From NCBI GenBank assembly GCA_025617375.2, contig JAMYGW020000009.1:1302001-1366000 (forward strand): 64,000 bases of DNA, given 5' to 3'. The position numbers and the translations under genes were made by a program. Below, piece by piece: positions 23,265-62,200 of the stretch. The stretch is from Acarospora socialis. Lineage: Eukaryota; Ascomycota; Lecanoromycetes; Acarosporales; Acarosporaceae. Below the pieces are notes generated by a model. The model had not been told where the DNA came from. It searched no databases and worked only from the letters and a program-made list of their open reading frames with translations. The first letter of the stretch is position 1. Every line of letters starts with the position of its first letter.

Positions 23265-23879
23265 CTAGTCATGAAACTCATTGCCACCCTCGCAGTCAAT
23301 AACTTGCTGAATGTGACAAGAAAGTGCATCAATTCATGCATTTATGACCTTCACAGGGAGATTTGCCCACTCCTTCCACCAGATTGCATCCATTTCGGGG
23401 ATTCTAGTAGAAATATGTCTGTAATTCTTCACTTAGTAGACACATGAATTGGAGATTCTAGCAGGAAATTACCTGTGTCTTCCCACTTGTTGTCACACCC
23501 ATGCCCAGGCATGCTCAATGGCATTAAGGTCAGGTGAGCATGGCGGCCATAGCAGTTTTTGAATTTCATAGGCCTCAAAGACCTCCTGATTTCAAGACTT
23601 ATTATGAACAGATGCATTATCTTTCACAATCAGAACAGAATGTTCACTCTTCTTCAATTTGACTGCAAAAGGCAGTAGTAATGGGTGAAGAACACACTCA
23701 TGATGTTGGAATCAATCAATGTCTTCTCTGCTTCTATTGCCATGCTTCTTGAGATCAGGGTGAAATTCAGAAAATTTTCCATGTTGTTTTCTGTCTTTCT
23801 CATTCAAATCCAGCTGTTTTAGATCTTGTTCTGCAAGATATTTAGTTCTAAGGCAGAAAAGATCTGCAGCATTCTTCTG
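23265..23879 (-). pseudogene. Tc1 transposase, C-terminal half
   Basis: Continuation of the transposase beyond the insertion. The second catalytic Asp lies in VKDNASVH (near 23620). The third acidic residue is in PCSPDLNAIEHAWAW (near 23520), the classic Tc1 D-D-E signature. The frame ends near 23265 with VIDCEGGNEFHD, a usual Tc1 C-terminus. There are in-frame stops within it. Confidence 0.85.
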
Positions 23880-24194
23880 TGTTATGGCCATACCCCAAGG
23901 AAATAGTGTAACAGAAGATACATCGGGGGCAGGTGTAATTCTGAGCATGAAATGATGAAACATCAGGCATTCCCTCATGAGCATGTGCTGAGAGCACATC
24001 AGAACACTGGAACACTGAGCATGCCAGTGTGTCTATTTCTATATAGTAGGATCAATTCCCTTATGAAACTGACTGTGTTCAACTCATCTAATTATGCAAT
24101 ACAAAGCTACTGTTTATCTAGAACCTTTGAACCCTTATATCAAGAAGCATAAACTCTAGCCCTATAACTGAGGAATCTCAGTTGGGATGTAACA
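23880..24194 (+). repeat. 5' LTR of gypsy A1
   Basis: 315 bp starting TGTTATGGCC and ending GATGTAACA. It is the same length as the 3' LTR; the differences appear to be mostly C/T and G/A. Confidence 0.9.
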
Positions 24195-25584
24195 CTTTGA
24201 ACACCCTCACAATATAAGAAATGTCATTCAAAGAATCAACCTCAGATGGTGTGTCACAGAGCACTGAATCAACAAAGATGATTAATGTTGATTCTGAAGT
24301 ACTCAAAGTCAAGACACTGAAGAACTTTATGAATAATCAATGAAATCTGAGGCAATTCCTTGCCCAACTAGATCTGTATGTTGAATTCAACATGAAGAAG
24401 TTTTCAAGCAATATTGACAGAGTCTTATTCACAATATCCTACCTAAAGAACACCACATTTAACTGAGTTGAACTCAAGCTCAGAGAGTTTCTGACCATGA
24501 ACTCAAGGAAGAAAGAAGCAAACACCTCATATATCAGTCATTGAGAATGATTCAAGAAGAAGCTTAAAGTGATTTTTGAGATAGTGAATGAGAAACATGC
24601 AGCAGAACAAAAGATACACACATTATGACAAGAAGAATTCACAGTCAAGTATGCAGCAGAGTTTCAACAACTTGCAGCACTCACACAGTGAAATATGAAT
24701 CAGTTAACATCAACATACTATTGAGACTTGAAAGAATCTATCAAGAACAAGATTGCACAAAACAAGTGACTCAATGACTTGCAGAAATTAATCAATCAAA
24801 CAATCATGATAAATGATCATCAATGAGAACATCAGATGAAAAAAAGAGACTACTGACATCAAAAATGAATGAGTAAACTCTCAAGAAAAAATCAGGGGCA
24901 ATCATACCTGAATCTCATGAATCTTAATGCAGTTGAGAAGCACCATCAGAAGTCATAAAGAACTAGATGAGTGAAGTCTGAATGCTGAACAGAGCAATTC
25001 AGTAAATCTCAGATAACACTGTGAAATGAAATGTGAACATATTACAACTGCAGAAAAACTGAACATCTAGTCTGAGAATGCAATAGATCTTGAATGAAAA
25101 GAAAGAATATTGCAGTAGTAATGATCAAAACAAAAACAAAGAAATCAAGTGTAGTGCATGACATTCTAAGTTGAACAGTCTGTTATGACAATATGTGCTG
25201 AGCACATATGAGTGCAAAAGATAAAGTCAGATGATATTCACAGAGATTACACAAAGATGTGAAGAATAGACACAACACAATGAGTTAATCAATCTATGAG
25301 AAAGAATTAGCTATTCTTATCAAGAAAAATGTTCTTGATGCTGAGATTGAAGAGATCAATACTTGAGAAACTCAGATAGAAGAAGACTACAGTGATAGCA
25401 TCTGACAAGCACTGAATTTGAATGCAGATCAGAAAGAAATTGATGAATGAAAAGTCAATATGAAGATGAAGAAAGAATATCAGCACTCTGAGAATCAATG
25501 TCAAGCATTGAAGAAAGAAAAGCTTCAATTCAAGAAGCAAGAGCTTGAACAGAAGATGCAAGTCTGAAAACAGAAAGTGCAACA

Positions 25585-25901
25585 TGTTATGTCTCAACTG
25601 AGATTTCTTGGTTATAGGGCTAGGGTTTATGCTTCTTGATATAAGGGTCCAAAGGTTCTAGGTAAACAGTAGCTTGTTATTGCATAACTAGATGAGTTGA
25701 ACACAATCAATTCCATAAGAAAATTGACCCTACTATATAGAAATAGACACACTGACACACTCAGTGTTCCAGTGTTCTGATGTGCTCTTTGACACATGCT
25801 CATGAGAAAACACCTGATATTTCATCATTTCATGCTCAGAACTACACCTGCTTCAGGTGTAGCTTCTGTTATGTTACTTTTCTTGAGATATAACTGTAAC
25901 A
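25585..25901 (-). repeat. LTR of the inner family-A element (left; its 3' LTR)
   Basis: 317 bp, reverse orientation, similar over its whole length to the A1 LTRs. Confidence 0.85.
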
Positions 25902-25978
25902 TCATTTCTTCTCTTCAGGCACTAGTTCTTTAGAGTTTATTTAAGTGAGAGTATTTATCTGCATTCATTCATCAATCT

Positions 25979-26293
25979 TTGATGATGCATCTGAAATTCA
26001 AAAATTGTCTTTGCCTTGTCAATATCATCTTTCATAAAGAAAATCCTGCACTTGTTTCTTGTGATTGCTGTCTTAGCATCAGTCTCTCTTGTATTGTGAT
26101 GTCTCTCAATTCTTCAGTGTCATATTTGATTGAGTTCATAACATTAAATGTTATCTCTTGTGAGTTTTCAAGAATTGAGATCTTCACACAGGTTTCCTCA
26201 TTGATTCTTTCTATGACTTCATTCATCATTTGTATGTTGAATGAACAGCACACTTGCTGTGTCACTAGTTCTAACATGTTGACTATTCATTGA
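25979..26293 (+). other. Antisense reading frame of the inner family-A element
   Basis: In this inverted copy the antisense frame lies on the + strand. It begins like the A1 and A2 frames (LKFKNCLCLVNIIF, then NPALVSCDCC) and then runs into unrelated sequence of the shortened element. Part of a fossil element. Confidence 0.5.
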
Positions 26294-28230
26294 CTTATGA
26301 TGTTACTGTCTGCTTCAAAATTCACCAATATGTTGATCTGATGTTCATTGATCATGATTTTGATTCATATTCTATGATCATTGTTTTGTCTTTGAGATGT
26401 CACTAGCTTCTTTTTCTCTAGTCTTGTTGAGGAAGCTTTTCATTTTTTGACTCACTTGATTGTTCAGCTCATCTTCAAAGTTCTTGAAATCATCTGAGTT
26501 TTCTTTCAACCATAAGGTTTGCATACTCTAAACTGTGCTGTTCAATGCATCTTTCTGAATGTAGTTGGGGTTTATACTGATTGTACTTTATCTGCAACTG
26601 ACTCTCAAAGACTCTTACTCTTTGCAGAAATTTAAGTGATATATACTCTTCACTGAAGATTCATCTATCTTCATTCTGTGTGGTATATTCTTCAGGTAAG
26701 TGTATCTCAACTTTGTGACTCTTTGTTTTTCAAACAAGAGATTTAGATAATACTGCATAGTCATTGCTGAGACATTCATCTTTAACAGCTGTTGTCAGCT
26801 TCTCTAGCTGATCATATATCTTTTGCTCTTTTGTGTTTTTGTGTTGTGCTTTCTGTTTCTGGGCTTGTATCTCTTGCTCAAGCTCTTGTTTCTTGAATTA
26901 AAGTTTTTCTTTCTTCAGTGCTCAGTATTGGTTCTCAGAGTGCTGATATGCTGTCTTCAGCTTCATATTGACTTCTTATTCATCAATTTCTTTCTGGTTC
27001 ACATTCAAATTTAGTGCTTGTCAGATGCTATCACTGTAGTTCTTTTTCACCTGAGTTTCTTGAGTATCAGTTTCTTTGATCTTGTCATTAAGAACATTTT
27101 TCTTGGTAAGAATAGCTAATTCTTTCTTGTAGGTTAATTGACTTGTTGTGTCATATCTATCTCTCACATCTTTGTGCAGTCTCTGTGAATACCATTCAGC
27201 TCTGTTCTTTGCACTCATATGTGCTCAGCACATATCATCATAACAGGTTGTTCAACTCAGAACATCATACACTACACTGAGTTTCTTTGTTTTTGTTTTG
27301 ACTGTTACTGCTGCAACATTCTTTCTCTTCATTCAAGGTCTGTTGCACTCTTGGGTGAGGTGTCTGAGTTTTTCACAGTTATAACATGTTTGTGTCTCAT
27401 TTCACAGTGTTATTTGAGACTTATTGAATCACCCTGTCTGACATTCAGACTCTGCTTGTCTAGCTTTTTATGACTTTTGATGATGCTTCTCAATCACATT
27501 AAGATTCATAGAGTTCAGGTATGATTGTCTTTGATTTTTTTTCTGAGACTTACTCATTCATCTTTGTTGTCAGTAGTTCTTTCTTTTCATTTGGTGTTCT
27601 CATTGATGACTGTCTATCATAATTGTTTGATTGATGAGTTCTTGTAAGTCATCAAGTCTCTTATCTTGTGCAATCTCATTCTTGATAGACTTCTTCAAGT
27701 CTCAATAGTATGTTGATGTTAACTGATCTGTGTTTCATTGTGTGAGTGCTGCAAGTCATTGAAACTCTGTCACATACTTAACTGCAGATTCTTCTTGCTG
27801 TAATGTGTGAATCTTTTGTTTTGTTGCACATTTCTCATTCACTACCCCAAAGATTACTCTAAGCTCTTTCTTGAACTGTTCTCAGTGACTGATATATGAA
27901 ATGTTTGCTTCTTTCTCTCTTGAGCTTATGATCAGAAACTCTCTGAGCTTGAGTTTGACTCAGTCAAATGCTGTGTTCTTCAGGTAGAATATTGTGAACA
28001 AGACTCTGTTGATATCACTTGAAAACTTCTTCACATTGAATTCAATGTACAGGTTTAGTTGGGCAAGAAATTGTCTCAGATTTCATCAATCACTCATAAA
28101 GTTCTCTAATGTCTTGACTTTGAGTACTTCTGAATTGACACTAATTGTCTTCATTAGTTCAGTACTTTGTGACACACCATCTGAGATTGACTCTTTGAAT
28201 GACATTCTTATATCATGAGAGTGTTCAAAG

Positions 28231-28547
28231 TGTTATGTTTCAACTGAGATTTCTTGATTATAGAGCTAGAGTTTATGCTTCTTGATATAAGGATTCAAAG
28301 ATTCTAGATAAACAGTAGCTTGTTATTGCATAACTAGATGAGTTGAACACAATCAATTTCATAAGAGAATCAACCCTACTATATAGAAATAGACACACTG
28401 ACACACCCAGCATTTCAGTGTTCTGATGTGTTCTTTGACACATGCTCATGAGAAAATGCCTGACATTTCATCATTTCATGCTCAGAACTACACCTGCTTC
28501 AGGTATAGCTTCTGTTATGTTATTTCTCTTGAAGTATGATCATAACA
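28231..28547 (-). repeat. LTR of the inner family-A element (right; its 5' LTR)
   Basis: 317 bp, reverse orientation, similar to 25585-25901, followed by the CAACA duplication. Confidence 0.85.
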
Positions 28548-31500
28548 CAACACAAAAGTATGAAAGAAAAAGAGACATATGATCAGCTAGAAAAGCTGAT
28601 GATAACTGTTAAAGATGAATGTTCTGACAGTGATGACACAGTATTGTTAAGATTTCTTGTTTGAAAAACAAAGAGTCACAAGATCAAGATATGCTTACCT
28701 GAAGAATATATCACACAGAAAAAAGATAGATGAATCTTCAGCAGAGAGTATATATCACTCAAATTTCTGCAAAGAGTAAGAGTCTGCAAGAGTCAGTTGC
28801 AGATGAAATATAATTAGTATGAATTCTGACTACATTCAGAAAGACACATTGAGCAATACAGTCTAAAATATGTGAATCTTATGATCAGAAGAGAATCTAG
28901 ATGATTTTAAGAACTTTGAAGATGAGCTGAGCAGTCACATGAGTCAAAAAATGAAAAGCTTTCTCAATGAGACTAGAGAATCAGGAGCTAGTGGCATCTC
29001 AAAGACAAAACAATGATTATTGAATATGAATCAAAATCACAATTAATGAACATCAAATCAACACATTAATGAATTCTGAAGCAGACAGTAATCTGATAAA
29101 TCAGAAAACAATTGATATGTTAGAATTAGTGACACAGTGAACACACTATTCATTCAACATACAAATGACAAACAGAGTCATCAAAAGAATTGATGAGAAA
29201 ATCTGTGTGAAAGTCTCAATTCTTGAAAACTCACAAGAGATAATGTTTGACATTATGAAGTCAATCAGATACAATGCAATACTAGAGATGTCTTGATTGT
29301 GCAGAAGAAATTCAAGAATCAACTGAGTTATGAAAGAAATATGTGCAGTTAAGAACACATATCAGATTCTCAAACAATCAGAAATGAGCTTATCAGAGTA
29401 TAAGTCATGAAATCATGAAATATTGCTATTGAATGAAAAGCAACCTAAGTGAATGTCATTATACTCAATGAGTGAGAATCAACTCAAGAAAGTAAAAACT
29501 TACCTTGATGAGAATCTGAAGAGAGAATTCATCAAATCATCAAAATCATTGACAGAATACCTGATTCTGTTTGTACTGAAGAAAGATGACAAGAAATGAC
29601 TATGTGTCAATTATAGACAACTCAACAAGATAACTCATCAAGACAGTTATTTTCTATCATTGATAGAAGAGTTGCAAGATCAGTTAGACAAGACTAAGTG
29701 GTTTATGAGCTTAGATCTTAAGAAGACTTACTATCAAGTGAGAATGAAAGAAGATAAAGAATGAAAAACAGCATTCTGAACAAGATATAAACATTATGAG
29801 TATATTATTATGTCATTTGAGCTGAAGAATGCTCTAGTCATCTTTCAGAGATTGATCAATGACATATTAAGAAAATATCTTGATGATTTTGTGATCATGT
29901 ATCTCAATGATATTCTGATATACTCAGAAGATCTTGAAGAACATTGAGAGCATGTGCAAAAGATATTGACAAGACTCAATGAGAGAGTTCTGTACATGAA
30001 AAAGTCAAAAAGCAGGTTTGAGATCAAGAAAGTTAAGTTTTTAAACTATGTGATTTGATCTGAACAGATCAAGAAAAATTCAAAAAAGATGAAAGTAGTC
30101 AGAGACTGATTGATGTCAAAGAAAATCAAGAAAGTACAAGTCTTTCTAGAATTGATGAATTACTATTGAAAGTTTGTATCAAACTATGCAAGAATTGTGA
30201 AATCACTAATGCATTTGACACACAAAAGTGAAGAATAACATTGAAATAAAGAGCAGAAAGATGTGTTTCACATATTAAAGAAAAGTCTTAGTGAAACAGC
30301 ACACCTGAGAATACTCAATTCAGCATGTGAGAAGACACTGAAAACTGATGCTTCAGATTTCACAGTAAAAGCATGTTTATATCAGATTGAGAAGAAACAG
30401 CAGAGACTCATAGTCTATTGATTTAGAAAACTATCAGAACTCAAGAAAAGATATGAGATTCATGACAAGAAACTTCTTGCAATAGTGAAAGCACTGCAAG
30501 ATTGAAGATCTTATCTTGCAAAAACAAGCAAGTCAGTTCAGATCTACACAGATCACAAGAATCTGAAAAACTTTGCAATGACAAAGCAACTCAATCAATG
30601 ACAGATTCATTGAGCAGAGCAGTTAGCAGATTATGAATTTCAGATTCATTACAAAAAAAGTAATGAAAATAATGAAGCAGATGTCTTGAGCAGATGACTC
30701 AATCATGAGAGTGTACAGATGATACACATCAAAATTCTAAGCAAAGATGACAACAGAATTCTCACAAAGAACTTAGCAGCAACATACAAGATAGAGCAAG
30801 CTTTCTTGATGAATGAAGAACTCATTAAAATGTGTCACTACAGCAGAGTCAGAGAACATCTAAAAGTCAAATGCACTGAGAATCTAGTGCAGAGAAAACA
30901 CAATATTGATGATCTTAGAAATTGAATCATCAAGATGATCACTGTGTGTGATTCATGCTGAAGAAACAAGATCAATCAAGATAGACAATACAACAAAGTA
31001 ACACAACTAGATGCACTGAATGCATCATGAAAGTCAGTTATCATGAACTTCATTACAAAGCTATCATCATCTAAAGATTCAGCATGAAAAGTGAAATTCA
31101 ACAATATACTGATCATAGTGAACAGATTGACCAAGTACACAATGTTCATTTCATTCAAAGAAACTGTGACAGCACCAATATTAACATATACAATACTGAG
31201 AGAATTGATTAGCAATCACAGACTATCAAAAGAATTTATCACTGACAGAGATAAGCTATTTACAAGCAAGTTTTGAAAAATGCTTACAGCAGAGCTTGAA
31301 ATAAAACACAAGATGTTGATAGCATATCACTCACAGACAGATGAGCAAAGCAAATGAATGAATCAAATAATAAAAACATACTTGAGACACTATGTCAATA
31401 AGAATCAGAATGACTGAGTATAGCTGTTGTCAACAGCACAGTTTGTGTACAACAACACAAGAAATGAGATCATGAAAGAGACATCTTTCTATGTGAACTA

Positions 31501-32063
31501 TGACTATGACTCAAAGATATGACAAGATCTCAGAGAACATGAATCACAAAGTCAAAAAGTGATTTTGAATATCACACAGATGAAGAAACTGCATCAAGAT
31601 CTAATGAAATGAATTGAACAACAAACAGAATGAACAACAAGAACAAAATCATTCAAAGAAAAAAAAAGAGTATATCTAAAAACAAACAACATACAGACAA
31701 AGAAGAAGAGCAAGAAGCTGAAGAACAAAAGCATTGAATCATTCAAGATCATATGAAACATCAAGAAGTTAAGCTATGAGCTAGACTTACTCAAGAAAAT
31801 GAGAATACATGCAGTATTTCATGCATTCATGCTACAGCATTGTGACCAGTTCATATCACTTCAAATCATCAAAATGTCTGTCAAACTCAATAAAGAATAT
31901 GAAGTTGAGAACATTCTAGAGAGAAGAATGATTAGTGAGAAAGTTCACTATCTCATCAAATGAAAAGACTATGATATCTCAGAGAATACCTGAAAATCAA
32001 GAGAAAATCTCAAGAACTGCACAAGAACACTTCAACATTTTGAGAAAGAGGGTCAAGGTTAAT

Positions 32064-32522
32064 TCAGAAGGATGAAGACATTGCATTTATAAGTTGTGAC
32101 ATCAAAGAAGAATTTTCATTCTCTGTTCTATCATTATCATCTGCAAGCTCTTCATCAAGACATCTCACTTTTGTGTTGATCTGAGCTTTGAACTGTTTCA
32201 AGATTTTTTGCAATCTAGCAATTCTTGTCAAGAGAGCAAGAAGCTGCTCATTGAGAGTCAGAAAGAGCTCATTCTCAGTTTTTAAATGAGCAGACTCTAA
32301 GAAGTCAAGAGAGAGATCAACACAGAAATGATCTTGACACACACACTCAGCACACTTCACAGACTTCAAGAAGTCAGATGACATCAAAGAATCAGAAGAC
32401 ATCACAATACAAGAGAGATTGATGTCAAGACAACAATCACAAGAAACAAGTGCAGGATTTTCTTTACAGAAGATAGTATCAACAAGGTGAAGATGATTTT
32501 TGAATTTTGAATGCATTGTCAA
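32064..32522 (-). other. Antisense reading frame of gypsy A1 with CxxC motifs
   Basis: A 152-codon open frame on the strand opposite to pol, between the chromodomain and the 3' LTR. It has CDCC near residue 29, later CAECVC, and a Leu/Lys/Glu-rich second half that looks like a coiled coil (LARLQ-type heptads). Related antisense frames sit at the same place in the other gypsy copies in this window. Part of a fossil element; function unknown. Confidence 0.6.
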
Positions 32523-32600
32523 GAAAATGACAGACAGATGCTGATATATACTCTCACTTAAATAGACTTTAGAGAACTAGTGCCTGAAGAGAAGAAATGA

Positions 32601-32915
32601 TGTTATGATCATATCTCAAGAGAATAGTGTAACAGAAGATACATCAAGAGCAGGTGTAATTCTGAGCATGAAATGACAGAACATCAGGCATTTTCTCATG
32701 AGCATGTGCTGAGGGCACATCAGAACACTGAAACACTGGGCATGTCAGTGTGTCTATTTCTATATAGTAGGGTTGATTCTCTTATGAAATCAACTGTGTT
32801 CAACTCATCTAGTTATGCAATACAAAGCTACTGTTTACCTAGAACCTTTGGACCCTTATATCAAGAAGCATAAACCCTAGCCCTATAATCAAGAAATCTC
32901 AGTTGAAACATAACA
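32601..32915 (+). repeat. 3' LTR of gypsy A1
   Basis: 315 bp starting TGTTATGATC and ending ACATAACA, followed by the TTCTG target duplication. Confidence 0.9.
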
Positions 32916-32920
32916 TTCTG

Positions 32921-33727
32921 CTTCAAAGCAGTCTCTGCATCTTGCTTTTCTTGCTGTAAATTGAAGAGTGTGATTAGTTATGCATACAAATTGAGTGTAA
33001 AACTAATCTCTGTCTCTGTGTGATAAACATGACATGAATTTTTTGCATCATAGACAAAGCAACCCCAGAATTGCAGCTTTGAGTATTTAGTCTGATGTCT
33101 GCGCACAACATCTGGAGAATACAGCTTCTTTTTGGCTGTCTTTCTTCAAAGTTTGTGATATTCTTGTTGTTCTCTCACTTTCACAGCAGTTTTGTTTGTG
33201 AAAATCATGCTTCATCAGTCAAAATCTTGATGTTTTAGGGCAAATTTCAGTCTAGTTTCCTTCTGTTTTTTGGAGAGCACAGGCTTAAGAGAAGAATCTC
33301 TTCATGCATAGTCCCTGTCATAGAGCAATTGCTGCAGAGTGAAAGAAGAAATCTGAAAATTTAGCTGTTTTAGTACATTATTTACCTGTCATTCTCAAGA
33401 ATCCCCATTCTCCATCACTTTCTTCACAATTTTGTCCTTTTCCTGTTCAGAAAGTTTCTTGGGCTGCCCACTTTGAGGTTTGCTGGTGTAATTCTCTAGT
33501 TCTTGCAGTGGTAAATCTGCCTTAGAAGTCTTGTTGTGAGCAGCTTTGACAATTCAACAAACAGTAGGCTGTGGGATGCCAGTTTTCTTTGCCACTTCAT
33601 GTGTGGTTTTTCCTAGCTTTTTGCATAGTGTGGCTATATAAACTCACTTTGGGACACTGATTTCTCTGCAAGATGTCTTATGAGGTTTAGGGTGGCAGTC
33701 TTTTGTATCATGATGAATTTGTGGCAT
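32921..33727 (-). pseudogene. Tc1 transposase, N-terminal half
   Basis: Starts at the minus-strand ATG at 33727 (MPQIHH...). An HTH region reads KTTHEVAKKTGIPQPTV, followed by the GRPR-like linker SGQPKKLSEQEKDKIVKK. Further on, the first catalytic Asp lies in a TDEA-like context near 33215, and LQFWGCF follows near 33060, as in Tc1 transposases. Several in-frame TGA/TAG codons break it. The coding sequence continues at 23874 on the far side of the inserted gypsy element. Confidence 0.85.
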
Positions 33728-46304: not shown

Positions 46305-46499
46305 ATGATGATTTTCAAAAGTGAAAATTGTCTCAGACTCACAAAAGAGATTCAATTAAGTGACAATCTTGTCTCTTTCTCTTACAAGTACTGTATTGTT
46401 CATGATCTTCATTGTTTTTTCATGATTGAAGAGCATTTTGAGTGCTCAAAGTGTGATAAGTGCACTCATTACAGTCATTCTTGTGTTGCAGTAATGTGA
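46305..46499 (+). other. Antisense reading frame of gypsy C with CxxC motif
   Basis: 64 codons opposite to pol, next to the 3' LTR. It contains RLTKEIQLSDNLVSF and CSKCDKCTHY, closely like the frame at 52094-52288. Part of a fossil element; function unknown. Confidence 0.55.
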
Positions 46500-49400
46500 T
46501 AGTTTCTCAATCAGACTTATCTTTTTCTTCAAAAGAAAATAAGTAAAGCAAATACTGAGCTGACAGCACTCTCTGCAAAGATAGTTCATCTTTAAAAGAT
46601 TCTCAATCTTACTGATCATTATACATCAAAAAAGACTGACTGTCTTGCTGCTGAGCTTGATAGTGATAATGATGAAACAAAAAATGAAATTGATTCTTCT
46701 GACATGCAACAACTAATTAACTTTATGTCTTCATTCTTCTGAAATTCTATACTATTTTTTTCTCAAAATGTTGAAGTGTTCTTACACAGTTCTTGAGATT
46801 CTCTCTGAGTTTTCATGTGTTTTCTGAGATATTATATTCTTTTCATTTGATGAGATAGTGAATTTTCTCACTAATCATTCTCTTTTTTAAAATGTTCTCA
46901 ACTTTGTATTCTTTGTCAGATTCAATCAATGTCTCAGTTGTTTGAAGTGATATGAACTGATTGCAGTGTTGCAGCATGAATGCATGAAATATTGAGTGTA
47001 TTCTCATTTCTTTGAGTAAGTCTAGCTCATAACTTATTTTCTTTATGTTTCTTTTGATCTCAAACAGTTCTATGCTTCTACTGTTCAATTTTTTACTTTT
47101 TTTCTTTGTTTTGATATTGTCTGTTCAAAGATATACTCTTTTTTCTTTCTAAAATAGTTCTTCATGCACTTTGCTCATCTGTCTTTGAATTTTGCTCATC
47201 AGATCTCTGTGCAGTTTTTTTATCTGTGTGATATTCAGAATTGCTTTTTAACTCTGTGACTCATGTTTTTGTGAATCTCATCATATCTTTGAGTTATATT
47301 TATAGTTCACATAAAATGATGTCTCTTCTGTGATCTCATTTCTTGCATTGTTGTATGCAAATTACACTGTTGATAGCAGTTGCACTCAGTTGTTCTGATT
47401 TTTGTTGATATAGTGTTTCAAGTATGTTTTTACTGTCTGATTCATTCATTCACTTTATCTGTCTGTCTGTAAGTAATATGCTGTTAATATCTTATGTTTT
47501 ATCTTGAGCTCTGCTGTGAGCATTTTTCAGAATTTGCTTGTGAATAACTTGTCTCTGTTGATGATAAGCTTCTTTAATAGTCTGTGATTGTTAATCAATT
47601 TTTGTAGTATTGTGTATGTCAACACTGATGCTGTTGTGATTTCTCTGAATGAAATGAACATCATGTACTTGATTAATCTATTTACTATAGTCAATATGCT
47701 GTTGAATTTTATCTTTCATGCTGAATTCTTTGATGATGATAGTTTCATAATGAAGTTCATCATAACTGACTTTCATGATCTGTCTGACACATCAATTTGT
47801 GTTACTTCATCATATCATTTATCTTGTTGAATCTTATTTTATTGACATAAATCACATCTGACAATCATTTCAGTGATTCAGTTTCTAAAATCACTAATGT
47901 TGCATCTTCTTCACACAAGATTCTTAATGCATTTAACTTTTAAGTGTTCATGAACTTTGTCTTCATAATATTCTTGTATGAGTTCTTCATCTGTTAAGAA
48001 AGCATTCTCTATCTTGTACATTGTCATTAATTCTTTAATTAGAACTTCATTGTCATTTTCTCTCAGAATTTTGACATAAACTTGCTTCACTTCTTCATGA
48101 TTGAATCATCTGCTTAAAACATCTGCTTTATCATTTTTATTATTTTTCTTGTAATGAATCTGAAATTCAAAGTCTGCTAACAATTCAGTTCAGTGAATCT
48201 GTCTATGATTCAACTGCTTAATCATTGTGAAGTTTCTCAGATTCTTATGATTCATGTAGATCTGTATAGACTTTTTCATATTTACAAAATAAGATTTTCA
48301 CTCTTGCAGTGCTTTCACTATTGCAAGAAGTTTCTTATTATGAATCTCATATCTTTTCTTGAGTTCTGATAACTTTCTAAATTAAAATGCTATGAGTCTC
48401 TGAATTTTCTTTTTAATCTGATATAAGCATGCTTCAACTGCAAAGTCTGACACATTGATCTTCAATATCTTCTCACATGCTGTTTAAAGTATCATGAGAT
48501 GAGCTGTTTCACTGAGACTTTTCTTCAATACATTGAATACATGCTTCTGTTTCTTATCTCAATGTTATTTTTTATCTTTCTGCATTAAGTGAATGAGAGA
48601 TTCTGCTACTTGTGAGTAGTTTAATACAAACTTTCAATAGTAATTCACTAATTCTAGAAAGATCTGTACTTTCTTGATTCTTATGAGTGTAAATTATTGT
48701 TTTATTGTCACTGTCTTTGCTGAATTCTTCTTGATGCACTCAGATCAAATCACATATTCTAAGAACTTAATTTCTTAAGTTTCAAATCTGCTTTTTGATT
48801 CTTTCATATATAGTAATCTCTTTCTTAACTTCACTAGTATCTTTTTTACATGCTCTCTGTGCTCTGTGAGATTCTCTGAATAAATCAGTATGTTATTTAG
48901 ATATGTGATCACAAAGTCATCAAGATATTTTCTCAACATATTGTTAATAAGTCTCTGAAAGATAGTTGATGCATTTTTCAGCTCAAATAACATAATAATG
49001 TACTCATAATGTTTATATCTTGTTCTGAAAGCTGTCTTTCATTTTTTTTCTTCTTTCATTCTAATTTGATGATAGACATTTTTGAGATCTATGCTGATAA
49101 ATTATTTAGTTTAATCAAGTCAGTTCTGCAATTCTTCAATCAAGAGTAGCAAATAACTGTTCTGTTGAGTTATCTCATTCAGTTGTCAATAGTTGACATA
49201 TAGTTGCTTTTGATCATTTAATTTCAGTACAAACAGAATTGAATATTTCACTGATGACTTCAATAATCTTATGAATTCTCTTTTGAAATTCTTGTCAAGA
49301 TAATTTCTGACTTTCTTGAGTTGATTTTTGCTCATTGAGTATAACAGCATTCACTTAGATTGCTTTTCTTTCAACAGTGATATCTCATGATCTCATGATT

Positions 49401-52093: not shown

Positions 52094-52288
52094 TTGTCAG
52101 CAATGATGCTTCCTAAAAATTTCAATTGTCTAAGAATTGCAAAGAAAATTCAACTCAGTGATAGTCTCACCATGTTTTCTTGTGAATTCTGTACTGCTTG
52201 TGATCTCAATTGCTTTGTCATGGTCAGTGAAAGATCAAAATGTGATAAGTGTACTCATCACAATTGCTCATACATTGCAGTATCATGA
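52094..52288 (+). other. Antisense reading frame of gypsy B with CxxC motif
   Basis: 64 codons opposite to pol: CLRIAKKIQLSDSLTMFSCEFCTACDLNCF followed by CDKCTHH (the first segment spans about 30 residues; only its key Cys pairs matter: CEFC, CTAC, CDKC). Same position as the frames in A1, A2 and C. Part of a fossil element. Confidence 0.55.
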
Positions 52289-53158
52289 AAGTCTCTCAAC
52301 AGAACTTGTCTTTTTCTTCATAAGAAAATAAGTGATGCAAATGTGATTCTTGATGTTCTTGCTGTCAAGATGGTGTGTCTTCAAAAGACTTTGAATCAAA
52401 TGAATTGTCATGCTACACAGAAGACTGACTGTCTTGCTGCTGAACTTAATAGTGATAATGATGAGACTGAGAATGAAAATTCTCAAACAATATCATAACT
52501 TGTTAACTTGATGTTGTCATTCTTCTGAGCTAATGTTGACTTCTTTTCTCAAAATGTTAAAGTGTTCTCACACAGTTCTTGAGATTCTCTTTGGGTTCTC
52601 AGATATTCTCTGAGATATTATAATCTTTTCATTTGATGAGATAGTGAACTTTTTCATTAATTATTTTCTTTTCTAGAATGTTCTCAACTTTGTATTCTTC
52701 ATTGAGTTTGACAGACATTTTGTTGATTTGAAGTGATATGAACTGGTTGCAGTGCTGTAGCATGAATGCATGAAATATCAAGTGTATTCTCATTTTCTTG
52801 AGTAAGTCTAGCTCATAGCTTAATTCCTTGATGTTTCATATGATTCTAAATGATTCAATGCTTTTGTTCTTTAGCTTCTTGCTTTTTCTCTTTGTCTGTA
52901 TGTTGTTCATTCTTAAATATACTCTTTCTTCTTCTTTGAATGATTTTGTCTCTGTTGTTCATTTTATCTGCTGTTTAATTCATTTTGTTAGATCTTAATG
53001 CAGTCTTTTCATCTGTGTGATGTTCAAAATCACTTTTTGACTTCATGATTCATGTTTCTTTGAATCTCACCATATCTTCAGATCATAGTCATAGTTCATA
53101 TAGAAAGATGTTTCTTCTGTGATTTTGTTTCTTGTGTTGTTGTATGTGAACTGTGCTG

Positions 53159-53475
53159 TGTTACAACCATATCTCAAGAAAAGTAGCATAACAAAAGCTA
53201 CATCTGAAGCAGACATAGTTCTGGGCATGAAATGACAGAATGTCAGACATTTTCTTGTGAGCATGTGTCAAAAAGCACATCAGAACACTGAAATGCTGAG
53301 TGTGTCAGTGTGTTTATTTCTATATAGTAGAGTTGATTCTCTTATGAAATCAATTGTGTTCAACTCATCTAGTTATGCAATAACAAGCTACTGTTTATCT
53401 AAAATCTTTGAATTCTTATATCAAGAAGCATAAACTCTAGCTCTATAATCAAGAAATCTCAGTTGAAACATAACA
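53159..53475 (+). repeat. 5' LTR of gypsy A2
   Basis: 317 bp, TGTTACAACC to ACATAACA, preceded by TGCTG. Confidence 0.9.
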
Positions 53476-56400: not shown

Positions 56401-58645
56401 ATAAAAGCAGTCAGAAACTGACTGACACTGAGAAGAATCAAGAAAGTACAAGTCTTTCTAGAATTGACAAACTATTATTGAAAGTTTGTACCAAACTATG
56501 CAAGAATTGCAGAACTGTTAATGCATTTGACACACAAGAGCAAAAAATGACATTGGGATAAAGAACAGAAAGACACATTTCATGTATTAAAGAAAAGTCT
56601 TAGTGAGATAGCACACCTGAGAATACTCAATTTAGCATGCAAGAAAACACTGAAAACTAATGCTTCAGATTTCACAGTAGAAGCATGTCTATATCAGATT
56701 GAGAATGAGCAACAAAGACTCATAGCATATCAATTTAGAAAGTTATCAGAACTCAAGAAAAGATATGAGGTTCATGACAAGAAACTTCTTGCAATAGTGA
56801 AAGCACTGCAAGATTGAAGATCTTATCTTGCAGAAATAGACAAGTCAATTCAGATCTACACAGATCACAAGAATCTGAGAAACTTCACAACAACAAAGCA
56901 ACTCAACCAACAACAGATTCATTGAACAGAGCAGTTGGCAGACTATGAATTTCAGATTCATTACAAGAAGAATAATGAGAATAATGAAGCAGATGTCTTG
57001 AGCAGACAACTCAATCATGAGAGTGTACAGATGGTACACATCAAAATTCTGAGTGAAGACAATGATGAAATTCTCATGAAGAGCTTGACAGCAATGTACA
57101 AGATGAAGCAAGCTTTCTTAACAGATAAAGAACTCATCAAGATATGTCACTACAGCAGAACTGAAGAACATCTGAAAGTTAAATACACAGAAGATCTAGT
57201 GCAGAGAAAACACAATGTTAACAATTTTAGAAATTGAATCATCAAGATGATTGCTGTGTGTGATTCATGTCAAAGAAATAGAATCAACTGAGATAGACAA
57301 TACAACAGAGTAACACAACTGAACACACCAAACACATCATGAAAGTCAGTTACCATGAACTTCATTATGAAGCTATCACTGTTGAAGAATTTGGCATGAG
57401 AGATAAGATTCAATAGCATATTGACCATAGTGAATAGATTGATCAAGTACACAATGTTCATTTCATTCAAAGAGACTGCAACAGCACCAATATTGACATA
57501 TACAATACTAAGAGAATTGATTAGCAATCACAAACTATCAAAGAAGTTTATCACTGACAGAGACAAGCTGTTTATGAGCAAGTTCTGAAAAATGCTCACA
57601 GCAGAACTCAGAATAAAACACAAGATGTTAACAGCATATCACTCACAGATGAATGAGCAAAGTGAATGAATGAATCAAACAGTGAAGACATACTTGAAAC
57701 ACTATGTCAACAAGAATCAGAATGACTGAGTATGACTGTTGTCAACAGCACAGTTTGCATACAACAACACAAAAAACAAAACTACAGAAGAAACACCTTT
57801 CTATGTGAACTATGACTACAACTCAGAGATATGGTGAGATCTCAAAGAACACAGATCATGAAGTCAAAAAGTGATTTTGAACATCACACAAATAAAGAAA
57901 CTGCATCAAGATCTGATGAAACAGATCAGACAGCAGACAGAATGAACAATAGAGACAAAATCATTTGAAGAAGAAGAAAAGATATATCTAAGAATGAACA
58001 ACATACAGACAAAGAAAAAAAGCAAGAAGCTGAAGAATAAAAGCATTGAATCATTCAAGATCACACAAAACATCAAGAAGTTAAGCTATGAGCTAGACTT
58101 ACCCAAAGAGATGAGAATACATTCAGTATTTCATGCATTCATGCTACAGCATTGCAACCAGTTCATATCACTTCAAACCACTGAAATGCTCATCAAACCC
58201 AATAAAGAATACAAAGTTAAGAACATTCTAAAGAAGAGAATGATTAGCAGAAAAGCTCACTATCTCATTAAGTGAAAAGATTACAATATCTCAGAGAATA
58301 TCTGAGAATCAGAAGAAAATCTCAAGAACTGTGTGAGAACACTTCAACATTTTGAGAAAAGAGATCAAGATTAGATCAGAAGGATGAAGACATTGTGTTC
58401 ATAAGTTGTGACATTGATTGAGAATTTTCATTCTCTGTTTCATCATTATCATCTGCAAGCTCTTCAGTGAGACACTTTGCTTTTGTGTTGATTTGAGCTT
58501 TGAACTGTTTCAAGATTTTTCACAATCTAGTGATTTTGACTAAAAGCACAAAGAGTTGCTCATCAAGAGCCAGAGAGAGCTCATTCTCAGTCTTTAAACA
58601 AACAGACTCTAAGAAGTCAAGAAAGAGACTGATGCAGAAATGACC

Positions 58646-58834
58646 TCAATGCACACACTCAGCACACTTTGCAGACTTCAAGAAGTTGAATGATGCTGAA
58701 GAATTGAGAGACATCACAATACAAGAGAGACTGATGTTAAGACAGTGATCACAAGAAACAAGTGCAGGATTTTCTTTACAAAAGATGGTATCAGCAAGAC
58801 AAAGGTGATTTTTGAATTTCAGATGCATCATCAA
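58646..58834 (-). other. Antisense reading frame of gypsy A2
   Basis: 62 codons open, opposite to pol: a FKNHLCLADTIF segment, then NPALVSCDHC and CAECVH, matching the frame at 32064-32522 in A1. Part of a fossil element. Confidence 0.55.
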
Positions 58835-59228: not shown

Positions 59229-62200
59229 TGCTGTTGATAACAGTCATACTCAGTTGTCTTAACTCTTGTTGACATAGTGTTTTAAGTATGTTTCTATCAT
59301 CTGATTCATTCATTTGCTTTGTCTGTCTGTCTGTGAGTGATATGCTGTTGATATCTTGTGTTTTATCTTGAGCTCTGCTGTAAGTGTTTTTCAAAACTTG
59401 CTTGTAAACAGCTTGTCTCTGTCAGTGATAAACTCTTTTAATAGTTCATGATTGCTAATCAATTCTCTCAGTATTGTGTATGTCAATATTGGTGCTGTTG
59501 CAGTTTCTTTGAATGAAATGAACATTGTGTACTTGATCAATCTGTTCACTATGATCAATATACTGTTGAATTTTACTTCTCATGCTGAGTTCTTTGATAG
59601 TGATAGCTTTATAATGAAGTTCATAGTAACTGACTTTCATGATGCATCTGATGTGTTCAGTTGTGTTATTTTGTTGTATTATTTATCTCAATTGATCTTA
59701 TTTCTTCAGCATGAATCACACACAGCAATCATCTTGATGATTCAATTTCTAAAATTGCTAATGTTGTGTCTTCTTCACACTAGATTCTTTGTGCATTTAA
59801 CTTCTAGATGTTCACTGACTCTGCTGTAATGATACATCTTAATGAGTTTTTTGTTTGTCAAGAGAGCTTGCTTCACCTTGTATATTGCTGCTAAGCTCTT
59901 CATGAGAATTTCACTATCATCTTCACTCAGAATTTCAGTGTGTATCATCTGTACATCTTCATGATCAGATTGTCTGCTCAAGATATTTGCTTTGTCATTC
60001 TCATTACTTTTCTTGTAATAAATCTGAAATTCATAATCTGTCAACTGCTTCACTCAACAAACTTGTTGTTGATTAAGTTGCTTTGTTGTTGCAAAGTTTC
60101 TCAGATTCTTGTGATCAGTATAGATCTGAATTGACTTGCTTGTTTTTGCAAGATAAGATCTTCAGTTTTGTAGTGCTTTCACTATTACAAGAAGTTCTTT
60201 GTCATGAATCTCATATCTTTTCTTGAGTTCTGATAGTTTTCTAGATCAATACACTATGAGTTTTTGTTGTTTCTTCTCAATCTGATATAGATATGCATTT
60301 ACTGCAAAATCTGAAGTGTCAGTTTTCAGTGTCTTTTTACATGCTAAATTGAGTATTCTCAGATGTGCTGTCTCACTAAGACTTTTCTTTAATATGTGAA
60401 ATGCATTCTTCTGCTCTTTATCTCAATGTTATTTTTCACTCTTGCATGTCAAATACATTAGTGGTTCTGCAATTCTCACATAGTTTGATACAAACTTTCA
60501 GTAATAGTTCATCAATTCTAGAAAGATCTGTACTTTCTTGATTCTTTTTAATATTAATCAGTTTCTGACTGCTTCTGTCTTCTTTAAATTCTTTTTAATC
60601 TGTTCAGATCAAATCACATAGTCTAGAAACTCAACTTTTCTGATCTCAAACCTGCTTTTTGACTTTTTCAGGTACAGAGCTCTCTCATTGAGCTTTGTCA
60701 ATATCTTTCACATATGCTCTCAGTACTCTTCAAGGTCTTCTGAATATATCAGAATATCATTAAGATACATGATCACAAAATCATCAAGATATTCTCTCAA
60801 CATATCATTGATCAATCTCTGAAAGATGACTGAGACATTTTTCAGTTCAAATGACATGATGATGTATTCATAATGTTTGTATCTTATTCAGAATGCTGTC
60901 TTTCATTTTTCATCTTCTTTCATTCTAACTTGATAATAGGTGTTCTTAAGGTCTAAGCTCATAAATCACTTAGTCTTTTCTAATTAATCTTGCAACTCTT
61001 TTATCAGTGATAGAAAATAACTGTCTCAATGAGTTATCTCATTGAGTTGTCTGTAGTTGACACACAGTCATTTTCTGTCATCTTTCTTTGATACAAACAG
61101 AATCAGGTATTCTGCTGATGACTTTGATGATTTGATGAATTCTCTTTTGAGATTCTCATCAAGGTAAGTTCTAACTTTCTTGAGCTGATTCTCACTCATT
61201 GAGTATAATGACATTCACTTAGATTGTTTTTCATTCAATAGTGATATCTCATGATTCCATGACTTATGCTCTGATAAGTTCATCTTTGATTGTTTGAGAA
61301 TCTTATATGTGTCTTTGACTGCACATATTTCTTTTGTGACTCAATTGATTCATGAATTCTTTTTGTGCAATCAAGGCATCTCTAGCATTGCATCATATTC
61401 AATTGATTTCATAACATCAAACATGATTTCTTGTAAGTTTTCAAGAATTGAGATCTTCACACAGATTTTCTCATCAATTCTTTCAATAACTTCATTTGTC
61501 ATTCATATGTTGAATGAACAGCACACTCATTGTGTCTCTAATTCTAACATATTGACTGTTTTTCAGCTCATAATGTTTTCATCTGCTTCAAAATTCATCA
61601 ATGCATTGATCTGATGTTCATTGATCATGATCTTGATTCATATTCTATGATTATTATTCTGTCTTTGAGATGTCACTAGCTTCTTATTCTCTAGTCTTGT
61701 TGAGAGAGCTTTTTGTTTTTTGACTCATTTAATTGTTCAGTTCATCTTCAAAGTTCTTGAAATCATCTGAGTTTTCTTTCAATCATAAGATTCACATACT
61801 CTAGACTATACTGTTCAATGTGTCTTTCTGAGTGTAGTTGAAGTTCATACTGATTGTATTTCATCTGCAACTGACTCTCAATGACTTTTACTCTTTGCAG
61901 AAATTCAAATGATATATACTCTTCACTGAAAATTCATCTTTCTTCATTCTGCATAATGTATTCTTCAGATAAGTGTGTCTCAATCTTGTGACTCTTCATT
62001 TTTTACACAAGAGATTTTGACATCAGTTCTCTTGTGATCATTCATACATCTCTTATTAGATCATCAAATTCTTTGCATATCTCTGCTTTCTGATTTCAAG
62101 TCTTTTGCTTTTTCTTCTGTGTTGTATTGTAATCTGATGTTATTTCTTTTTGAGTACTTAGATCTTTTTTGATCTTCATTTGATACTCTTTTGAAAGCTC

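What the first reader, a model, noticed from the sequence alone, without database searches (positions are those of the whole stretch)
32064..32522. Antisense Cys-x2-Cys frame present in all gypsy copies here: possible under-described retroelement gene
In A1, A2, the inner A element, C and B, a frame opposite to pol lies between the chromodomain and the 3' LTR. It keeps CxxC pairs (CDCC, CSKC, CDKC) and, in A1, a coiled-coil-like second half of a 152-codon frame. Presence at the same site in three diverged LTR families (A, B, C), and retention in a copy lacking most of pol, argues for selection before decay. It could be a zinc-binding regulator expressed from the 3' LTR region.
Basis: partly seen in the sequence, partly recalled or inferred. 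Interest (0 to 1): 0.75.

Follow-up and report, generated by a model that had tools for sequence, protein, structure and literature searches.

The report
Antisense accessory gene in fungal retrotransposons
The odd backward reading frame is a real gene that evolution kept in a large group of fungal jumping elements; it has what looks like its own start signal, resembles a zinc-binding paired protein, and has been swapped between elements together with their control region.

Summary
A genome-wide search gave 151 matches. In 77 copies, transversions, which the local RIP-like decay does not make, fall 146:110:284 on antisense codon positions 1:2:3; the pol frame gives 41:32:109, the LTR side 109:135:121. 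An unmutated-looking copy has the antisense frame open, though its pol carries in-frame stops. A TATA-like element lies upstream of the ATG in 73 of 80 copies, against 3 of 560 control stretches. CDCC and CDKC contain framework cysteines; CSKC's first cysteine is probably decay-made. The framework is C-x2-C-x6-C-x(8-18)-C-x2-C-x6-C, then a predicted long helix. That is Zn2Cys6 spacing, but homology is not shown. Unexpectedly, families A and C share one pol (1.0% transversions over 2794 bp), yet differ by 21-39% in most of the antisense gene and 31-37% in U3: gene and LTR were exchanged together. Antisense genes at this site are known (brtn, plant aORF-3R), so this is a new variant. A regulator acting on its own U3 is my best guess, not shown.

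The parts
32064..32522 (-). antisense accessory gene of element A1 (152 codons from TTG, 150 from the ATG at 32514-32516, stop at 32064-32066)
   Evidence: codon-position-3 excess of transversions
32322..32441 (-). six-cysteine stretch C-x2-C-x6-C-x18-C-x2-C-x6-C (residues 28-67)
   Evidence: all six Cys in 59 of 80 copies; per position Cys in 74 of 79, 78 of 79, 79 of 80, 73 of 80, 69 of 80 and 79 of 80 copies, losses to Tyr
32070..32276 (-). predicted long helix, coiled-coil-like (residues 83-151)
   Evidence: single-sequence AlphaFold2; ten-residue blocks at pLDDT 81-94 for residues 91-150, 67 and 61 at the ends; a/d positions richer in hydrophobics in the four copies looked at
32547..32612 (-). 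conserved block -31 to -96 upstream of the antisense ATG: presumed antisense core promoter plus polypurine tract and LTR edge
   Evidence: 10-bp means of 0.0-0.6 transversion events per column against 1.6-3.6 on either side
32557..32564 (-). TATTTAAG, TATA-like element of the antisense gene (TATATAAG in L066)
32586..32597 (+). presumed polypurine tract GAAGAGAAGAAA before the 3' LTR
   Evidence: read from sequence; no transversion events in the aligned columns -80 to -71
32601..32916 (+). 3' LTR of A1
   Evidence: 32601-32905 matches the 5' LTR 23880-24184 at 89%; the outer end is taken from matches to other LTRs in the same call
23880..24184 (+). 5' LTR of A1 (matched part)
28546..32062 (+). 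pol part of A1 (decayed), ending in the chromodomain just before the antisense gene
   Evidence: the corresponding frame of L066 matches SH3_Tf2-1 and Chromo
58379..58834 (-). antisense gene copy in element A2 (2 in-frame stops)
46317..46739 (+). antisense gene copy in element B (3 in-frame stops)
52124..52525 (+). antisense gene copy in element C (2 in-frame stops)
25979..26122 (+). first 48 codons of the antisense gene in the inner A copy; no further match there

Best explanation
A genuine accessory gene of Ty3/gypsy chromodomain elements, lying antisense between pol and the 3' LTR. Shown: purifying selection on the antisense protein while the elements were spreading; a conserved TATA-like element upstream on the antisense strand; a conserved six-cysteine framework, followed in A1 by a predicted long helix; and joint exchange of this gene with the adjacent LTR part between elements that share pol. 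Inferred: the gene is read from its own antisense promoter into a small zinc-binding, coiled-coil-dimerised nuclear protein that binds palindromic sites in the element's own U3 and sets the level of its own transcription. A regulator and its target would then travel as one cassette. I put about 0.97 on the gene being real and about 0.4 on the U3-regulator mechanism; the figure below is for the whole statement.
For: Transversion events by codon position 146:110:284 (antisense frame), 41:32:109 (pol, positive control), 109:135:121 (LTR side, negative control) on 77 copies. In 686 pairs at 10-20% divergence the transversion rates are .0048/.0044/.0307 while transitions are .147/.134/.173. Mean in-frame stops are 2.2 in this frame against 6.2-20.5 in the other five; 6 of 80 copies have none here, 0 of 80 in each of the others. 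L066, a copy without the decay signature, has the antisense frame open. TATWTAAG upstream in 73 of 80 copies against 3 of 560 control stretches; the longer motif has 116 exact sites genome-wide and 0 for its reversed control. Cys framework in A-, B/C- and L066-type proteins. A1 against C: pol transversions 0.010 and 0.009, against 0.21-0.39 in the first 375 nt of the frame and 0.31-0.37 in U3. The gene tree and the pol tree reject each other (AU p 3.25e-5 or less). Over 73 copies gene distance follows U3 (r 0.94) better than pol (0.39). U3 holds more short palindromes than shuffles (0.70 against 0.15 in 60 near copies, 0.72 against 0.22 in 18 far copies), and the recurrent ones differ between types.
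Against: Zn2Cys6 homology is not significant (PF00172 11.1 bits, E 0.44; hhalign probability 4% against 19 host domains), and the first loop of L066 and A-type proteins lacks basic residues. The N-terminal half was not modelled with confidence (block pLDDT 26-42). U3 and antisense gene are neighbours, so joint exchange needs no functional link. Within types the gene follows pol about as well as U3 (near: 0.83 against 0.89; far: 0.79 against 0.70). Palindromes also exceed shuffles elsewhere: R/U5 side (near 0.27 against 0.13, far 0.43 against 0.12), one pol stretch of near copies (0.38 against 0.14), one frame stretch of far copies (0.47 against 0.23); in L066 alone 22 of 500 shuffles reached the U3 count. 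The conserved upstream block could serve the sense strand. No expression data.
Confidence: 0.45

Rival explanations
1. Same gene, different job: the protein acts in replication or integration (nucleic-acid chaperone, nuclear import, chromatin targeting beside the chromodomain), not as a U3 regulator.
For: Cysteine pairs and a predicted helix suit RNA or chromatin binding too. Within types the gene co-varies with pol at r 0.83 (near) and 0.79 (far).
Against: The same pol is found with antisense genes differing by 0.21-0.39 transversions per site in most of their length, so tight co-adaptation to pol is unlikely. The exchange took U3 along.
Confidence: 0.3
2. Same gene, aimed at the host: it counters RIP-like mutation, silencing or methylation, and its divergence reflects an arms race.
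For: The genome is heavily armed against repeats (CpG gone, CpC strongly depleted in the elements). The gene is diverse between element types.
Against: Position 3, not positions 1-2, carries most of the divergence; within the A type, positions 1-2 of the N-half are strongly constrained (.010/.005 against .072). No sign of diversifying selection in these counts.
Confidence: 0.15
3. The conserved thing is the antisense RNA or its promoter; the open frame is incidental.
For: The promoter-side block is the most conserved stretch upstream of the frame.
Against: A codon-position-3 excess in this frame and amino-acid conservation across types need a protein. In L066 the one sense frame that shares this wobble position has a listed ORF only over the first 68 nt of the gene (425-844) and none of 50 codons beyond (read).
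Confidence: 0.03
4. Chance open frame from base composition after RIP-like mutation.
For: RIP-like C-to-T change makes stops only from some codons, so some frames survive.
Against: 0 of 400 shuffles; codon signal; 151 matches genome-wide; open in the copy without decay signature.
Confidence: 0.01

Closest known systems
brtn of Boty-like retrotransposons (Botrytis cinerea; Zhao et al. 2011, not held; seen through passages of PMC8365987, PMC7264820, PMC4227169, PMC5987419)
   Same: Additional antisense gene in a fungal gypsy element whose gag-pol carries a CHROMO domain (PMC4227169 passage); the review PMC7264820 places it between pol and 3' LTR. A BRTN-like sequence is reported among Monilinia transcripts (PMC5987419 passage).
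   Different: The BRTN sequence could not be compared. The passages I saw report no antisense TATA block, six-Cys framework or exchange with U3.
Plant aORF-3R genes: Grande gene23, RIRE2, Retand, PvRetro13 (review PMC7264820, passages)
   Same: Antisense gene between pol and 3' LTR, kept in most copies, transcribed from its own upstream promoter in Grande; Grande's protein is nuclear; function not known.
   Different: The review reports no clear similarity to other proteins, apart from an SMC domain in PvRetro13; the passages seen mention no cysteine framework. No sequence was compared here.
Fungal Zn(II)2Cys6 (Gal4-type) regulators, PF00172
   Same: Same cysteine spacing x2, x6, variable, x2, x6, then a coiled-coil-like helix (architecture of the known family recalled).
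   Different: Below Pfam's cut-off; no basic first loop in L066 and A-type; no detectable profile homology.
Recombinant centromeric retrotransposons of grasses (PMC4079200, passages)
   Same: Elements that combine LTR/UTR parts of one lineage with polyprotein of another; template switching or nested insertion is suggested there.
   Different: No antisense gene is mentioned in the passages seen.
HTLV antisense transcription (mentioned in PMC7264820, passage)
   Same: Antisense transcription near the 3' end of a retroelement.
   Different: That promoter lies inside the 3' LTR; no homology tested.

Membership tests
Antisense additional ORF between pol and 3' LTR (aORF-3R; brtn and plant types) | frame antisense to pol, between pol and the 3' LTR | tested here: met
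Antisense additional ORF between pol and 3' LTR (aORF-3R; brtn and plant types) | conserved as a protein among copies | tested here: met
Antisense additional ORF between pol and 3' LTR (aORF-3R; brtn and plant types) | present in most copies of the element family | not tested
   copies that lack the gene were not counted; all loci were fetched by this gene
Antisense additional ORF between pol and 3' LTR (aORF-3R; brtn and plant types) | sequence homology to BRTN | not testable with these tools
   paper not held; no sequence at hand
Antisense additional ORF between pol and 3' LTR (aORF-3R; brtn and plant types) | own antisense transcript | not testable with these tools
   only a promoter-like block was seen
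Zn(II)2Cys6 binuclear cluster proteins (PF00172) | CX2CX6C - variable linker - CX2CX6-8C (range recalled) | tested here: met
   linkers of 8-18 residues, 18 in 57 of 80 copies, longer than the usual 5-12 (recalled)
Zn(II)2Cys6 binuclear cluster proteins (PF00172) | score over Pfam's cut-off or significant profile match | tested here: not met
   11.1 bits against cut-off 21 (L066); hhalign probability 4%
Zn(II)2Cys6 binuclear cluster proteins (PF00172) | basic residues between Cys 2 and Cys 3 (recalled) | tested here: not met
   No Lys/Arg in this loop of L066 or A1, while 19 of 19 host domains have them. In the B/C type one loop column is C 14, H 4 (col 34) and may have been Arg before decay
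Ty3/gypsy chromoviruses | integrase followed by a chromodomain | tested here: met
   L066: rve 3.7e-10, SH3_Tf2-1 1.4e-18, Chromo 5.2e-18, in pieces of one frame

The most novel reading that the evidence does not exclude
The U3 and the antisense gene form a self-specific regulator-plus-target cassette: each element type carries a Zn-cluster-like dimeric protein matched to palindromes in its own U3. Retrotransposons change their regulatory identity by swapping this cassette onto an unchanged pol.
Probability: 0.28. Interest if true: 0.82.

Novelty: new variant of a known kind. Interest (0 to 1): 0.62.

Why it matters
The review of additional ORFs seen here (PMC7264820, passages) says the function of antisense genes in LTR retrotransposons is not known. 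This case gives a codon-level signal of selection that survives heavy RIP-like decay, a candidate promoter, a concrete protein framework to test, and a natural swap experiment (same pol, different antisense gene and U3) that points at the LTR as partner. That makes the function of such genes directly testable.

Tried and rejected
Chance ORF: rejected. Selection argument from the inner copy: set aside, only 48 codons match there. All CxxC pairs as evidence: rejected for the Arg-derived columns. Zn2Cys6 membership: not accepted. Other family searches gave nothing convincing: Pfam on A1 (best Phage_Mu_Gam, E 0.066); Pfam on five open copies, where one member matched Gp-FAR-1 at E 3.3e-4 and the other families were at 0.024 or worse; NCBIfam, one member at E 0.0034, 16.4 bits against a cut-off of 350; PDB sequences, best E 0.016, apolipophorin-III. 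I take these as helix-composition matches (inference). Relatives in viral contigs and prokaryote genome contigs: none confirmed; the phage, plasmid and E. coli collections were not searched. Structure of A1 from a single sequence: only the C-terminal helix is confident. A second structure job with window fragments was dropped because the alignment misplaced N-terminal pieces. No fold search was run. Frequent shuffling of the gene against pol: not supported; within types the gene follows pol. A guess at the host order from its decay pattern led nowhere firm; the species is not established. Literature: 10 searches were answered, of which 39, 73 and 76 bear directly on a zinc-finger antisense gene in fungal gypsy elements; they listed 1, 2 and 0 papers, judged by title and start of abstract only. 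Searches listed 15 of 156, 15 of 59 and 12 of 25 papers. The key paper (Zhao 2011) and PMC2892095 are not held. While checking this report I corrected an earlier reading: pol of L066 is not fully open.

Full report
What is there. The window lies in a 31.1-Mb genome of 38 contigs, fungal by content (97 matches to the fungal Zn2Cys6 family at E up to 10, most marked over the cut-off); the species was not established. The A+T-rich part holds nested Ty3/gypsy elements. In the five element-rich stretches measured, CpG odds are 0.00 and CpC/GpG odds 0.02-0.29, while CpA and TpG are in excess (1.5-1.7). This is a RIP-like decay at CpG and CpC rather than CpA. By the rules of such decay (inference) it turns TGG and CGA codons into TGA and Arg codons CGY into Cys or His, so decayed frames must be read with care.

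The frame. 32064-32522 (-) is open in A1, starts where pol ends and runs back toward the 3' LTR (32601-32916). Shuffled sequence never gave such a frame (0 of 400). A protein search of the whole genome scored 150 of 308 candidates and reports 151 matches down to 34% identity, a few of them pieces of one copy and most covering nearly the whole query; the number of copies is a lower bound. I fetched a part of these. With the window copies, 81 matches were taken and 80 entered the alignment (the short copy at 25979-26122 was left out): 60 of the A type ('near') and 20 others including L066.

Selection. Because decay makes transitions, I counted transversions. Parsimony events on a tree of 77 copies are 146, 110 and 284 at antisense codon positions 1, 2, 3 (152 columns each); the pol frame next to it gives 41, 32, 109 (138 columns each) and the LTR side 109, 135, 121 (97-101 columns each). 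For 686 pairs at 10-20% divergence the transversion rates are .0048.0044 and .0307, while transitions are .147.134 and .173. The protein was under purifying selection while the elements multiplied; decay afterwards was close to neutral. One copy, L066, lacks the decay signature (GC 0.48, 49 CpG per kb). There the antisense frame is open over 192 codons stop to stop and the SH3/chromodomain end of pol over 146 codons; further upstream the pol frame seen carries three in-frame stops. The antisense gene has open copies; pol of L066 is broken. Pfam finds integrase, SH3_Tf2-1 and Chromo in the pieces.

Promoter. The stretch from -96 to -31 before the antisense ATG is almost free of transversions (10-bp means 0.0-0.6 against 1.6-3.6 on both sides). 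Part of this is the LTR edge and the polypurine tract, needed anyway. The part next to the gene holds TATTTAAG or TATATAAG, at 41-56 bp before the ATG and most often 47, in 73 of 80 copies, against 3 of 560 control stretches; four of the seven misses show a one-letter variant such as TACTTAAG or TATTTAAA, as read from the list. L066 reads CCTATATAAGCGAGAG. A 31-letter version has 116 exact sites in the genome and none for its reversed control; how many of the 116 lie beside the gene was not counted. I read it as the antisense core promoter. A role on the sense strand is not excluded.

Protein. Six cysteines are kept across types: C-x2-C-x6-C-x(8-18)-C-x2-C-x6-C. Per position Cys is found in 74 of 79, 78 of 79, 79 of 80, 73 of 80, 69 of 80 and 79 of 80 copies, the losses being Tyr. 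All six are present in 59 of 80, and both x6 spacings hold in 79 of 80. Cys codons are poor targets of CpG/CpC-directed change, so persistence within a type is weak evidence; conservation between the types is the stronger one. The second half is predicted as one long helix (residues 83-151; ten-residue blocks of pLDDT 81-94 for residues 91-150), with hydrophobics favoured at a/d positions (0.61-0.81 against 0.24-0.40 in the four copies looked at, best of seven registers). The spacing is that of Zn2Cys6 regulators (recalled), but the match to PF00172 is below cut-off (11.1 bits), profile comparison with 19 host domains gives 4% probability and covers only one cysteine triplet, and the basic first loop is missing in L066 and the A type. 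So it may work like such a protein; it is not filed as one.

Exchange. A1 and C have the same pol: transversions 0.010 over 2794 bp and 0.009 over 638 bp, against 0.008 between A1 and A2. In the antisense gene they jump to 0.21-0.39 for about the first 375 nt, and the U3 bins are at 0.31-0.37; the U5 side is at about 0.15. The change lies near alignment codon 140 (20 near against 19 far copies). A1 and B differ more in pol (0.059 over 2564 bp), but the far end of their LTR is close (0.01-0.03) while U3 and gene are not. Near-far means over 73 copies are gene 0.258, U3 0.253, U5-side stretch 0.218, pol 0.022; gene distance follows U3 (r 0.94) better than U5 (0.64) or pol (0.39). So in most far copies the whole LTR differs, not U3 alone. 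Trees from R/Y-coded gene and pol reject each other (AU p 9.5e-142 and 3.25e-5; the program warns that 5000 replicates are few). Third positions argue for age rather than speed: near-far position 3 is .354 in the gene and .041 in pol. Within types, gene and pol agree (r 0.83 and 0.79), so exchanges were probably few. Template switching between co-packaged RNAs is the ordinary route (inferred; suggested for grass elements in PMC4079200, passages).

Function. U3 carries more short palindromes than shuffles (0.70 against 0.15 in 60 near copies; 0.72 against 0.22 in 18 far copies), and the recurrent ones differ between types. The R/U5 side (0.27 against 0.13; 0.43 against 0.12), one pol stretch of near copies (0.38 against 0.14) and one frame stretch of far copies (0.47 against 0.23) also exceed shuffles, and copies are related, so this is suggestive only. 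A dimeric DNA-binding protein acting on its own U3 would explain the architecture and the joint exchange. Simple linkage explains the exchange too.

Known or new. Antisense genes between pol and the 3' LTR are described for Boty (brtn) and several plant elements, function not known (PMC7264820 and PMC8365987, passages). The present gene is a new variant of that kind. What I did not find in the passages and listings seen is the cysteine framework, the conserved antisense TATA block, or the exchange with U3; the primary brtn paper was not available.

Noticed in passing
window 23800-32900 and 38000-64000: RIP-like decay with an unusual target: CpG gone, CpC/GpG strongly depleted (odds 0.02-0.29), CpA/TpG in excess (1.5-1.7). 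The context is CpG plus CpC rather than CpA.
   Followed up: partly
window 28645-32063 and 59229-62022 / 52528-53167: Elements A1 and C share one pol (about 1% transversions) but have different LTRs and antisense genes: a recombinant element family.
   Followed up: yes
L066:519-543; A-type copies at about -268 from the antisense ATG: An inverted repeat close to the sense TATA of the LTR; arms differ between copies yet still pair (L066 GATCGTTTCC/GGAAACGATC; L014 TCGATTCC/GGAATCGA). Possibly a hairpin at the sense start site.
   Followed up: partly
L066:576-644: U3 of the copy without decay signature has two copies of GTCGACTCGAC and an inverted repeat with 22-nt arms (86%), which looks like a site for a dimeric protein.
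   Followed up: partly
window 33395-33553 (-): Remnant that looked like a Tc1-type transposase start to me (recalled); Pfam gave no supporting match, only DUF356 at E 0.0038 below its cut-off.
   Followed up: partly
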